DNA from: Gammaproteobacteria bacterium
GTDB lineage: Bacteria > Pseudomonadota > Gammaproteobacteria > Steroidobacterales > Steroidobacteraceae
Direction of reading: 5' to 3'
Assembly (NCBI GenBank): GCA_028293775.1
Contig: JAQGOD010000515.1
Location: forward strand, 1-9,127
Length of the DNA: 9,127 nucleotides
Of the stretch, positions 1-9,127 are shown piece after piece. The first letter of the stretch is position 1. Every line of letters begins with the position of its first letter. The notes beneath the pieces are model-generated. The model saw only the letters and a program-made list of their open reading frames with translations, made no database searches and was not told the origin of the DNA. The position numbers were made by a program, and so were the translations under genes.

Positions 1-915
1 CACCGCACCGACATAGGTCAGCCGCGCCTTGAAAGTACGCTTAGGGTAAGCCAGCACGCGCACCTCCACCGGTTGTCCCAGCTCTACGAGACCTGCATCC
101 GTCTCGCGCACATTGGCCAGCAGCCAAACGCTCGAGGGATCGGCGATGGTGAATACCGGCGTGCCGCCGCCGGCTTGCAGAAATTGTCCGGGACCGACTT
201 GACGATCGATGACCACCCCGGCAATGGGCGCAGCCAATGTCGCGACAGGATTGATCTTCAGAGCGCTTTCCATCTGGGTGATTTGCTGCGGCGATTTGCC
301 CAGGATGCGCAGGCGATTGCGGATCGAGTTCAACGAGGTTTCCGCCGTGGTCCGCTCCGCCTGCGCGGATTGCCAATCCTGCAAGCTGCCGCCCTTGGCC
401 TCGTATAGCGCGTGTTTACGAGATTCATTGATGCGCGCGAGCTTCAGCTGAGCGGCACCCGATTCAAGGTCGTTTTGTGCCTGCACGAACTCGGGAGATT
501 CCAGGGTGGCAAGCGGCGCACCCGCTTTGACGGTATCGCCCAAGCCGGCGATGACGCGGGTGACGCGGCCTGAAAAAGGCGTAAACACTGCGGTTGCGTG
601 ATCGGCGTTGGCGGCGATCTTGCCTTCCGTTAATTCCTCGCTGACGAAGGCGTGCGTGCCTACTGGTTCAATGGTCAGGGTTTTGAGTTGCTGGTCGGTG
701 GGGCGAAATGTGCCGGCCGGTGCGGCGGCGGGTGCGGCCGCCGGTTCTCGCGAGCCGGGAATTCGCAGAGCGAGCCAAAGCACCAGTATGGCGGCGACTA
801 CCGATGCAGCGGCAATCCCCACCACCCGCCACTGGCGCTGAGGAGGCCACGCGCGCCGAGCGATCGGATCCTTCCCATCAGGCGGCCGATCGGAATCGTT
901 TGGCACTTCGCTCAT
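1..915 (-). CDS. RND efflux periplasmic adaptor (HlyD/CzcB-CusB family), 3' end cut by window
   Basis: Periplasmic adaptor that would link an inner-membrane RND pump to an outer-membrane channel, probably for metal ions. The frame is open from ATG at 915 to the window edge: 305 codons, C-terminus missing. Residues 1-30 are hydrophilic and cytosolic; residues about 31-50 form one hydrophobic anchor or signal segment. An Ala/Pro-rich linker follows. The first lipoyl half-motif is near residues 111-140 (FTPFSGRVTRVI, GDTVKAGAPLATLE). An alanine/glutamine-rich alpha-hairpin follows, with NRLRILGKS at its end. The second lipoyl half has APIAGVVIDRQVGPGQ, then a beta-barrel region with VWLLANVRE. 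AAAGGG lies 6 bases before the start. The gene starts 76 bases after the repressor stop on the same strand, so the two are probably co-transcribed. No His- or Met-rich N-terminal metal-binding tail is visible, so the substrate cannot be read from this protein. The family call is firm; the metal is inferred from the neighbouring sensor. Confidence 0.9.
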   Translation of the reverse strand, partial: MSEVPNDSDRPPDGKDPIARRAWPPQRQWRVVGIAAASVVAAILVLWLALRIPGSREPAAAPAAAPAGTFRPTDQQLKTLTIEPVGTHAFVSEELTEGKIAANADHATAVFTPFSGRVTRVIAGLGDTVKAGAPLATLESPEFVQAQNDLESGAAQLKLARINESRKHALYEAKGGSLQDWQSAQAERTTAETSLNSIRNRLRILGKSPQQITQMESALKINPVATLAAPIAGVVIDRQVGPGQFLQAGGGTPVFTIADPSSVWLLANVRETDAGLVELGQPVEVRVLAYPKRTFKARLTYVGAV

Positions 916-991
916 ATCGACCCTTTCATGATCCGTGTCGCCTCGCGGCCGGGGAGCCGGGCGCTCACTTTACGGCGAGCAGCTTACCGAT

Positions 992-1273
992 TCATTTTTT
1001 CAGGTATTGATGCACGATTTCCACCAGCTCCTCGGCCGCCGCCGCCCGAGGATCATCCCGGCCCGCCTTCGGATCCATCATGTGCTCGCGAATATGATCT
1101 TCAATGACTTCGGCAATGAATCCATCGAGAGCCCCCCGGCATGCCGTCGCTTGCTGCAACACGTCGGCGCATTCCTGATCATTCGTCACCGCTCGCTCAA
1201 TTGCCTCGAGTTGACCGCGCAACCGCTTGATGCGATTCAGCAGTTTTATCTTTTCTTTTGCCACGTGGCTCAT
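992..1273 (-). CDS. FrmR/RcnR/CsoR-family metal-sensing repressor with His-Cys-His-His ligand set
   Basis: Small all-helical repressor of 93 residues, typical for this family, which loses DNA affinity when it binds metal (or formaldehyde in FrmR). ATG at 1273 is chosen because AAGAGG lies 9 bases upstream and because it puts the family's metal positions in register without gaps: His3, Cys35, His60 and His64. That set is the one known for the nickel/cobalt sensor RcnR. The body resembles FrmR more (RIKRLRGQLEAIER, then VLQQ, then IREH). Residue 2 is Ser rather than the Pro used by FrmR with Cys35 for formaldehyde, and no formaldehyde dehydrogenase gene is seen nearby. An upstream in-frame ATG at 1321 would add 16 residues, displace His3 and lie upstream of the -10 box, so it is unlikely. 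The gene is the first of a minus-strand unit with the RND adaptor and probably represses it and itself through the palindrome at 1297-1313. Family certain; nickel/cobalt specificity inferred. Confidence 0.9.
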   Translation of the reverse strand: MSHVAKEKIKLLNRIKRLRGQLEAIERAVTNDQECADVLQQATACRGALDGFIAEVIEDHIREHMMDPKAGRDDPRAAAAEELVEIVHQYLKK

Positions 1274-1286
1274 GCATTCATACCTC

Positions 1287-1316
1287 TTGATGTAGCATAC
1301 CCTAGTAGGGTATATT
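1287..1316 (+). promoter_or_regulatory. sigma70-like divergent promoter of the porin gene
   Basis: On the plus strand, TTGATG (1287-1292) and TATATT (1311-1316) are separated by 18 bases. It overlaps the minus-strand promoter almost completely, and the same palindrome fills its spacer and the first part of its -10 box. Expected transcription start is near 1323, about 70 bases before the preferred porin start. Spacing is one base longer than ideal, so it is somewhat less certain than the minus-strand promoter. Confidence 0.5.
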
Positions 1317-1321
1317 TTCAA
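1294..1321 (-). promoter_or_regulatory. sigma70-like promoter of the repressor/RND operon
   Basis: Read on the minus strand, TTGAAA (1321-1316) and TATGCT (1299-1294) are separated by 16 bases, both close to sigma70 consensus. Expected start of transcription is near 1287, which gives a leader of only about 14 bases before ATG 1273 and places the AAGAGG ribosome site at the very 5' end of the message. The spacer and part of the -10 box are covered by the palindrome at 1297-1313. Seen in sequence; activity inferred. Confidence 0.65.
1297..1313. promoter_or_regulatory. 17-bp perfect palindromic operator, probably for the FrmR/RcnR-family repressor
   Basis: ATACCCTA-G-TAGGGTAT: two perfect 8-base arms around one central base. 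AT-rich ends flanking a C-tract and a matching G-tract are the known style of CsoR/FrmR/RcnR-family operators, which sit beside the repressor's own gene as here. It lies inside the spacers of both divergent promoters, so one bound repressor tetramer could block both. Arms and position are seen directly; the identity of the ligand is inferred from the adjacent gene. Confidence 0.75.
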
Positions 1322-1392
1322 AGCGCTGATGCGTTGACCGGCCCCAGCGCGTCCTCTCGAGCGTGAATGTCTTCGCTCAAATCGAGATAGAA

Positions 1393-2763
1393 ATGGCTGG
1401 AATTTTCATAAACTCACGTGCGGCCTTGATTGTATGCGCCGTGTTCACGGCTTTCGCAGGGAGAGTGGGCTGGGCATCACCCGCCGCCGGCCCGCAGACG
1501 GATGCAGACTTGAGTGCGGAAACGCCGCGCGAGAAGTTTGGATTCCACGCTCAATTCACCTACGTCGAGCAAGATACTTCCGGGTTCAACACCCCGTACC
1601 GCGGCCCGAACAGACTTACACCTCGCATCGGCCGGGAGACCACCGATATCACCCTGTATCTGGGCACGAGGCTGTGGCAGGGCGCGGAACTCTGGATCAA
1701 TCCGGAAATCGATCAGGGGTTCGGCCTCGACAACACCGTGGGCGTGGCCGGATTTCCCAGCGGGGAGGCGTACAAGATCGGTAAGACGCAGCCCTACTTT
1801 CGGCTACCCCGCCTGTTTGTGCGCGACACCCTCGATCTTCAAGGCGAGCGCGCAGCCCTGGACCCCGGCGCGAATCAGCTCGGCGGCGATCGATGCTCAA
1901 ATCGCATTGTGATCTGGCTGGGGAAATTTAGCGTGTCGGATGTTTTCGACGTCAATCAATACGCGCACGATCCGCGCGCGGATTTCCTCAATTGGGCTGC
2001 CGTCGATGCCGGAACCTTCGATTATGCCGCCGATGCGTGGGGGTACACGGTGGGTACCGCGCTCGAATGGTATCAGGGCGCATGGAGCACCCGCGCCGGC
2101 GTCTTCGATCTATCGAACATCCCCAACAGCGCGCATCTTGAGCCGGGCTTCAAAGAATTTCAGCTGATCGCCGAGCTCGAGCACCGCCATGAAATGGCCG
2201 ATCATTCGGGCAAGCTCATGCTCACGGTATTCGACAGCTTCGGGCGCATGGGGCTGCTCGACGAGGCCGTTCAGCGTGCGATCGACGCGCAAACACCGGT
2301 GGACATCGCCGCCGTGCGCCGCTACCGCACGCGGCTTGGCGCCCACCTCAATGTCGAGCAGCAGCTATCGAAGGATTTGGGCTTCTTCGCGCGCGTCGGC
2401 AAAGCCGCCGGGAATGTCGAGGCTTACGAATTCTCGGACATCGACCGCACGGTATCCACCGGACTATCGCTGAAAGGCTCCGCCTGGAGCCGCGCACGCG
2501 ACACCGTGGGATTGGCGGGAATCGTCAATGGCATATCGGCGGCGCGCGAGCGGTATTTGAACGCCGGCGGTCTCGGCATTCTCGTTGGCGACGGCAAACT
2601 GCCGCATCCGGGAGCGGAGATGATCGTGGAAACCTATTACAACGCCGCTGTTCTATCGCACGCGCAGATCACGCTTGACTATCAATGGGTTGGTAACCCG
2701 GCATACAACCGGGATCGCGGACCGGTCTCGATATTCGCAGTGCGCGTTCACGCCCAGTTCTAG
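1393..2763 (+). CDS. OprB-family carbohydrate-porin-like outer-membrane beta-barrel
   Basis: Predicted outer-membrane porin of 456 residues from ATG 1393. Residues 1-28 look like a Sec signal peptide: Arg9, a hydrophobic stretch over residues 10-22, and likely cleavage after Ala28 (GWA/SP). The rest alternates polar and hydrophobic residues as in a beta-barrel and ends in Phe (VRVHAQF), the usual outer-membrane assembly signal. Motifs recalled from the OprB-type family include FDVNQYAHDPRADFLNW, WINPEIDQGFG and NPAYNRDRGPVSIFAVR. The GTG at 1363 is in frame but would put an acidic ten-residue extension before the signal peptide and has no ribosome site. ATG 1393 has GAGAT shortly upstream. 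The gene is divergent from the metal-sensing repressor and shares its operator, so it may be metal-regulated. It converges on glmU with 4 bases between stop codons (this one TAG). The transported substrate is unknown; OprB names sugar uptake, but the context suggests another role. Confidence 0.85.
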   Translation: MAGIFINSRAALIVCAVFTAFAGRVGWASPAAGPQTDADLSAETPREKFGFHAQFTYVEQDTSGFNTPYRGPNRLTPRIGRETTDITLYLGTRLWQGAELWINPEIDQGFGLDNTVGVAGFPSGEAYKIGKTQPYFRLPRLFVRDTLDLQGERAALDPGANQLGGDRCSNRIVIWLGKFSVSDVFDVNQYAHDPRADFLNWAAVDAGTFDYAADAWGYTVGTALEWYQGAWSTRAGVFDLSNIPNSAHLEPGFKEFQLIAELEHRHEMADHSGKLMLTVFDSFGRMGLLDEAVQRAIDAQTPVDIAAVRRYRTRLGAHLNVEQQLSKDLGFFARVGKAAGNVEAYEFSDIDRTVSTGLSLKGSAWSRARDTVGLAGIVNGISAARERYLNAGGLGILVGDGKLPHPGAEMIVETYYNAAVLSHAQITLDYQWVGNPAYNRDRGPVSIFAVRVHAQF

Positions 2764-8547: not shown

Positions 8548-9084
8548 TTAAGCCGTCAGCTCGAACGCGATGCGTTTGAGCCGGCTGAGCAAGGAACCGT
8601 CGATTACCGTATCGCCTGAACGCAGCACGGCGCCGCCGATGAGTGTGGGATCCGTGGCGCAATGCAGGCGCACCGTGCGCTTGAGCTTGCGCTCCAGGGC
8701 TTTGGAGAGCGCCTGCTGCTGCGCGCCATCGATGGGCGCGGCCGAAGTGACCGTCACGTCGACGACGCTTTCCTCTTCGTCCTTGAACTCGTCGAACAGA
8801 GCCGACATTTCGGGCAGGAAAGCCAATCGGCGATTCTCCGCGAGGGTGCGAAAAAAATTTTCGGCGTGCTCGTCGAGACCGGGACCTAAGAGGCCCATTA
8901 CGAATTGCGCAAGCTCTTCGGCTGTGACCGAGGGGCTGCCAAGCAGTTCGTGGACGCGCGGATCGCGCACGGCGGTGGCGGCGGTTCGCAGGATCTGCGA
9001 CCATTGCGCCAGGCGCTTGTCGGCCTAGGCTTCTTCGAAACCCGCTTTGGCGTAGGGCCGCGCGATGGTGGTATTCTCAGCCAT
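8548..9084 (-). pseudogene. atpH: F1Fo ATP synthase delta subunit, reading frame interrupted by an in-frame amber codon
   Basis: Delta subunit of the peripheral stator, joining the N-termini of alpha to the b subunits. ATG 9084 to TAA 8550-8548 gives 179 codons, exactly the usual length (E. coli 177 residues). The start reads MAENTTIARPYAKAGFEEA, a normal delta N-terminus, but codon 20 is TAG (9027-9025). The same frame then continues as ADKRLAQWSQILRTAATAV and on to IGGAVLRSGDTVIDGSLLSRL, a typical delta C-terminal domain. One base (TAG from CAG, Gln) is enough to explain it; no frameshift is present. Without readthrough, the only late start is GTG 8970 (residue 39, no ribosome site), giving 140 residues that lack much of the alpha-binding domain. 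Since ATP synthase subunits either side are intact, a sequencing or assembly error, a rare allele, or suppression are all possible. ATG lies 11 bases after the atpF stop, with AGGA upstream. Family certain; status of the gene open. Confidence 0.85.
9025..9027 (-). other. atpH: in-frame TAG at codon 20 of atpH
   Basis: Plus-strand CTA at 9025-9027 reads TAG in the atpH frame. It sits in the palindrome GCCTAGGC (9023-9030). If the original codon was CAG, the site was CCAGG, a Dcm-type methylation motif, and the change is the C-to-T expected from deamination of the methylated inner cytosine. The presence of the stop is seen directly; the history is inference. Confidence 0.9.
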
Positions 9085-9095
9085 GTCCAGCCGTC

Positions 9096-9127
9096 CTAGA
9101 TCTGCGACGCAAGGTGGTCGATCAGAT
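9096..9127 (-). CDS. atpF: F1Fo ATP synthase b subunit, C-terminal end only
   Basis: The last nine codons before TAG (9098-9096) read LIDHLASQI, a typical end for the b subunit of the Fo stator stalk, which binds delta. The remainder lies beyond the window. It is identified mainly by position, directly before atpH with an 11-base gap, and by the fit of this short tail to known b-subunit ends; the peptide alone is too short for proof. Confidence 0.75.
   Translation of the reverse strand, partial: LIDHLASQI

What the first reader, a model, noticed from the sequence alone, without database searches (positions are those of the whole stretch)
9025..9027. Amber codon at position 20 of an otherwise complete ATP synthase delta gene
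Seen: the frame from ATG 9084 to TAA 8550-8548 has the normal delta length and motifs on both sides of a single TAG. Known: the delta N-terminal domain anchors the stator to alpha and is normally needed for oxidative phosphorylation. Inference: the options are a sequencing or assembly error, a strain carrying a defective allele, leaky or suppressed amber reading, or reinitiation at GTG 8970. The surrounding atp genes show no decay, which argues against long-standing loss.
Basis: partly seen in the sequence, partly recalled or inferred. Interest (0 to 1): 0.72.

Follow-up and report, generated by a model that had tools for sequence, protein, structure and literature searches.

The report
Sequence-end errors mimicking broken atpH
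The premature stop near the start of this bacterial ATP synthase gene sits in a 100-base stretch at the very end of the sequence that holds several odd changes rarely or never seen in relatives, so it is most likely a sequencing or assembly error and the gene in the living organism is probably ordinary and intact.

Summary
In detail: on the minus strand, codon 20 of atpH (ATP synthase delta) reads TAG at 9027-9025, and the rest of the frame is a normal delta. It is most likely an artefact. The nearest database protein, P0001 (14 contigs), is identical to the window over residues 21-178 and differs only at residues 4, 15 and 20. All three lie in the last 101 bases. The nine atpF codons visible there carry two residues found in none of the 120 listed atpF relatives. 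Against two related MAGs, the last 101 bases hold 5 window-only substitutions, all amino-acid-changing transversions; elsewhere 20 of 238 are of that type (Fisher p 8e-6). The other window end shows no such excess. TAG recoding is unlikely: atpF, atpG, atpC and a porin gene of the window end in TAG. No stop occurs at codon 20 in 119 relatives' proteins or 30 family genomes. Reads could not be seen, so a real nonsense allele is not excluded (about 5%); that 9127 is the contig end is inferred. Ordinary; score low.

The parts
8548..9084 (-). atpH, ATP synthase delta subunit, 178 codons, with in-frame TAG at codon 20
   Evidence: residues 21-178 identical to P0001
9025..9027 (-). in-frame TAG, codon 20 of atpH; nearest relatives encode Lys here
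9027..9127 (.). stretch at the window end with five window-only amino-acid-changing transversions (9114, 9107, 9073, 9041, 9027): probable error-rich sequence end
9096..9125 (-). 3' end of atpF (b subunit), LIDHLASQI then TAG stop; H and S found in none of the 120 listed relatives at these positions
8548..8970 (-). 140-aa in-frame ORF from GTG 8970, listed as the first start after the TAG; no Shine-Dalgarno-like sequence seen upstream

Best explanation
The TAG is a base-calling or assembly error in the last ~100 bases of a metagenome-type sequence, probably the single-read or low-coverage end of a contig. The cell's atpH is most likely an ordinary intact delta subunit that joins the b-subunit stator to the alpha subunits of F1 (delta's role is recalled knowledge). 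Shown here: the clustering, the type of the changes and the intact near-identical relatives. Inferred: that 9127 is the contig end and that coverage there is low.
For: (1) P0001 is identical to the window over residues 21-178 and differs only at residues 4, 15 and 20; 3 of 3 differences in the first 20 of 178 residues has p 0.0012. (2) At residue 15 the window residue occurs in 0 of 119 relatives of 178 aa, at residue 4 in 1 of 119, and none has a stop at residue 20. Over residues 21-178 every window residue occurs in some relative, even with P0001 and P0002 left out. As a yardstick, 1 of 119 relatives has more than one residue of its first 20 seen in no other. (3) atpF tail: H (0 of 120; K 117, Q 3) and S (0 of 120; A 95, T 22, E 2, Q 1), and neither in 30 family genomes. 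(4) Window-only substitutions against L035 and L036: 5 of 5 are amino-acid-changing transversions in the last 101 bases, against 20 of 238 elsewhere in atpH to glmU; Fisher p 7.8e-6. (5) The left window end shows no excess: no difference from P0241 in the last 34 adaptor codons, and with P0241 left out 1 of those 34 residues is unseen in 85 relatives, against 14 of all 305. (6) None of the listed atpH matches in 200 family genomes has an internal stop (listing cut).
Against: No reads, qualities or coverage could be seen, and no record length is given for the window, so the contig-end premise is inferred. Five changes in 101 bases is high for typical short-read data (general knowledge). The 101-base boundary was chosen after seeing the stop, so the p values are optimistic. 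N at residue 4 is rare but not unique: 1 of 119 relatives (P0111) and 1 of 30 family genomes (L020). Elsewhere in atpH (8862-8921) four window-only amino-acid-changing transversions also fall within 101 bases; at those residues the window agrees with P0001, whereas at the three end residues of atpH it does not.
Confidence: 0.93

Rival explanations
1. A real nonsense allele of atpH in part of a wild population: the delta subunit is truncated at 19 residues and oxidative phosphorylation is impaired.
For: The stop is in the given sequence, and null alleles of atp genes can persist in fermenting cells (recalled, not searched).
Against: It does not explain four further unusual changes within 101 bases, two of them in atpF, nor the absence of any residue change from P0001 in residues 21-178. 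Relaxed selection would spread changes over the whole gene.
Confidence: 0.05
2. TAG is read through or recoded (suppressor tRNA or pyrrolysine) so that full-length delta is made.
For: The frame after the stop is identical in residues to P0001.
Against: TAG ends atpF, atpG, atpC and the porin gene in this window and the atpF of L001 and L002. PylS_Cterm reaches its cut-off in 0 of 2 related MAGs (weak hits of 23 and 21 bits against 178). None of 119 relatives' proteins or 30 family genomes has a stop at this codon. tRNAs with a CUA anticodon were not searched in the related genomes; the window itself holds no tRNA.
Confidence: 0.01
3. Reinitiation at GTG 8970 gives a 140-residue delta that lacks the start of the N-terminal domain.
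For: The ORF exists and matches PF00213.
Against: No Shine-Dalgarno-like sequence is visible upstream. 119 of the 120 relatives listed are 178 aa long.
Confidence: 0.01

Closest known systems
F0F1 ATP synthase subunit delta (atpH; PF00213, TIGR01145); nearest named relatives are MAGs labelled Steroidobacteraceae or Gammaproteobacteria
   Same: Length, place in the order atpF-atpH-atpA-atpG-atpD-atpC-glmU, and all residues 21-178 of P0001
   Different: Stop at codon 20, Asn at 4, Gly at 15, all within the last 101 bases of the window
Error-rich low-coverage ends of metagenome contigs (assembly artefact; recalled as a general phenomenon, not found spelled out in the passages seen)
   Same: Changes are clustered at one end, amino-acid-changing, transversion-only and rare or absent in relatives
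   Different: Coverage and record end could not be inspected

Membership tests
ATP synthase delta (PF00213 / TIGR01145) | Profile match over the curated cut-off | tested here: met
   140 bits against a cut-off of 22.3 (residues 22-178); TIGR01145 113.2 bits against 57.5 for the GTG 8970 ORF
ATP synthase delta (PF00213 / TIGR01145) | Position between atpF and atpA in an atp operon | tested here: met
   atpF tail, atpH, atpA, atpG, atpD, atpC, glmU in order
ATP synthase delta (PF00213 / TIGR01145) | Uninterrupted N-terminal domain | tested here: not met
   TAG at codon 20 in the sequence as given; probably an error
Recoded or suppressed TAG gene | TAG is not used as an ordinary stop in the genome | tested here: not met
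   atpF, atpG, atpC and porin gene end in TAG; L001 atpH also ends in TAG
Recoded or suppressed TAG gene | Pyrrolysyl-tRNA synthetase present | tested here: inconclusive
   0 of 2 related MAGs over the cut-off; the window's own genome is not held
Pseudogene under relaxed selection | Changes spread over the gene | tested here: not met
   0 residue differences from P0001 in residues 21-178
Sequence-end error cluster | Unusual changes confined to a sequence end, in both neighbouring genes | tested here: met
Sequence-end error cluster | Low read depth or quality at the end of the contig | not testable with these tools
   No reads; no genome or record held for the window

The most novel reading that the evidence does not exclude
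A real amber allele in a wild population of this uncultured gammaproteobacterium, with linked changes at the atpF/atpH junction that remodel the b-delta contact, so that some cells live with a truncated or read-through delta.
Probability: 0.05. Interest if true: 0.4.

Novelty: not a real feature. Interest (0 to 1): 0.06.

Why it matters
Mainly as a caution: a premature stop close to a sequence end should be compared with its neighbours' private changes before it is read as biology. If the stop were real, it would show that some cells of this lineage tolerate loss of the delta N-terminal domain, which could then be tested.

Tried and rejected
Rejected: TAG reassignment or suppression (four other genes in the window end in TAG; PylS below cut-off in 2 of 2 related MAGs). 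Old pseudogene (no residue change in 21-178 against P0001). Strain variation (the unusual residues occur in 0 of 119 or 0 of 120 relatives, except N4 in 1 of 119; N4 also in 1 of 30 genomes). Second atpH copy: one match each in the two related MAGs; not testable for the window's own genome. Retroelement-type adenine mutagenesis was considered and dropped, because the five changes fall on A, C and G positions of the relatives.

Led nowhere: an exact pattern around the stop in viral contigs (0 matches); plasmid collection by tblastn (19 records, all under 60% identity); genus-wide DNA search for a closer genome (the same 23 genomes searched from two centres; only G001 and G002 are near, at 84% and 81%); one search translated L002 in a wrong frame and was not used. 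One search's tally of codon 20 in 30 loci was faulty, because it read one strand only; it was redone. The Fisher tests do not depend on that part. The first left-end control counted P0241 among the relatives, a protein listed without sources, which is how the tool says it marks proteins that the window itself encodes; it was repeated without it. Papers: two searches (listings and starts of abstracts seen) and passages of PMC6843070 and PMC7953547. These speak of sequencing errors, uneven coverage and mis-assembly; in the passages seen neither measures error density at contig ends.

Full report
Observation. The minus strand carries atpH from ATG 9084 to TAA 8550-8548, 178 codons, with TAG at codon 20 (9027-9025). 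The part after the stop matches the delta/OSCP family (PF00213, 140 bits; TIGR01145 for the GTG 8970 ORF). The neighbours are the atpF end, atpA, atpG, atpD, atpC and glmU, in the normal order.

Close relatives. A genome scan found two MAG relatives, L001 and L002 (83% and 85% protein identity), and a protein search gave 851 relatives, the best 120 listed. The nearest, P0001 (14 contigs, longest 42,472 bases), is 178 aa and identical to the window over residues 21-178. It differs only at residue 4 (N in the window, K in P0001), residue 15 (G, A) and residue 20 (stop, K). P0002 to P0005 share those three differences and add 1, 9, 12 and 16 others, all after residue 20. Codon 20 itself is a variable column (Q 58, K 25, R 16, L 8, T 6, E 2 and a few others among 119 relatives of 178 aa; one of the 120 listed, of 154 aa, was left out of that count). 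Residues 4 and 15 are nearly invariant there (K 117 of 119; A 118 of 119). In 30 family genomes read at DNA level, residue 4 is K 21, R 6, D 2, N 1; residue 15 is A 29, S 1; residue 20 is R 20, K 4, Q 3, A 3, no stop.

The stop is part of a cluster. The window also shows the last nine residues of atpF, LIDHLASQI. Its H occurs in 0 of 120 listed atpF relatives (K 117, Q 3) and its S in 0 of 120 (A 95, T 22, E 2, Q 1). The same two residues are absent at those positions from the 30 family genomes. As a yardstick, 118 of 120 atpF relatives have no residue of their last nine that is unique to them, and 105 of 119 delta relatives have none in their first 20 (13 have one; one, P0091, has three). The window has G15 and the stop, seen in none, plus N4, seen in one.

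Kind of change. I aligned the window codon by codon with the operons of both MAGs (L035, L036; 2062 codons of atpF tail to glmU aligned to both) and counted bases where the two MAGs agree and the window differs. In the last 101 bases (29 codons) there are 5, at 9114, 9107, 9073, 9041 and 9027; all five are transversions and all change the amino acid. In the other 2033 codons there are 238: 154 transitions and 84 transversions, 194 silent, and 20 amino-acid-changing transversions. Fisher tests: amino-acid-changing transversions p 7.8e-6; transversions alone p 0.006; amino-acid-changing alone p 0.0003. The 101-base boundary was set at the stop itself, so these p values are somewhat optimistic. 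A result against uniqueness: another 101-base stretch, inside atpH around 8862-8921, holds four such changes. There, however, the window agrees in residues with P0001, so those look like ordinary divergence of this lineage, whereas the three end changes in atpH are not shared with P0001-P0005 and the two in atpF with none of the 120 listed.

Control at the other end. The CzcB/CusB-like adaptor gene cut by the left window edge differs from P0241 at 3 of 305 residues, none in the last 100 bases. P0241 is listed without sources, which is how the tool says it marks proteins that the window itself encodes, so it may not be independent. With it left out, 1 of the last 34 residues (window 1-102) is unseen in 85 relatives of 414 aa, against 14 of all 305 (34 of the 120 listed relatives, of other lengths, were not counted). 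That is no excess. Sequence-end position alone is therefore not enough; one end looks bad and the other does not.

Mechanism. Changes that are rare or unseen in relatives, all within about one short-read length of the sequence end, hit two adjacent genes alike and leave the rest of the gene untouched. The simplest cause is error at the thin end of a contig. That no genome is held for the window and that both edges cut through genes fit a metagenome contig, but I could not see the record, its length or its reads. The papers seen (passages only) describe errors, uneven coverage and mis-assembly in metagenomes generally; none of those passages measures error at contig ends.

Alternatives. A defective allele would need four neighbouring unusual changes at the same time. 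Recoding is opposed by TAG serving as the stop of atpF, atpG, atpC and the porin gene here, and of atpF in 10 of 30 family genomes, both MAGs included, by TAG ending atpH in L001, and by PylS scoring below its cut-off in both MAGs. Among 200 genomes of the family, 175 have a delta match; all listed rows (150 by my hand count; more are not listed) have no internal stop. Reinitiation at GTG 8970 has no visible ribosome-binding sequence.

Verdict. Interest is low.

Noticed in passing
window 1-2763: Beyond glmU lie a CzcB/CusB-like metal-efflux adaptor (cut by the left edge), a small metal-sensitive repressor of the FrmR/RcnR type (PF02583) and an OprB-family porin on the other strand (PF04966): a metal-efflux-like group next to the atp operon.
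   Followed up: partly
window 8862-8921: A patch of atpH in which the window differs from both MAG relatives by four amino-acid-changing transversions while agreeing in residues with P0001: probably ordinary divergence.
   Followed up: yes
P0120 (154 aa): One delta relative starts near residue 25 of the others; it may be another truncated or interrupted 5' end. Its contig was not fetched.
   Followed up: no
P0091 (178 aa): This delta relative has 12 residues seen in no other of the 119 (3 in the first 20, 9 after), on a 995-base contig: possibly another error-rich record.
   Followed up: no
plasmid collection hits H1-H3: Records of 4.1 to 4.9 Mb of Proteus mirabilis and Aeromonas caviae are filed as plasmids although their length and atpH-like content suggest chromosomes.
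   Followed up: no
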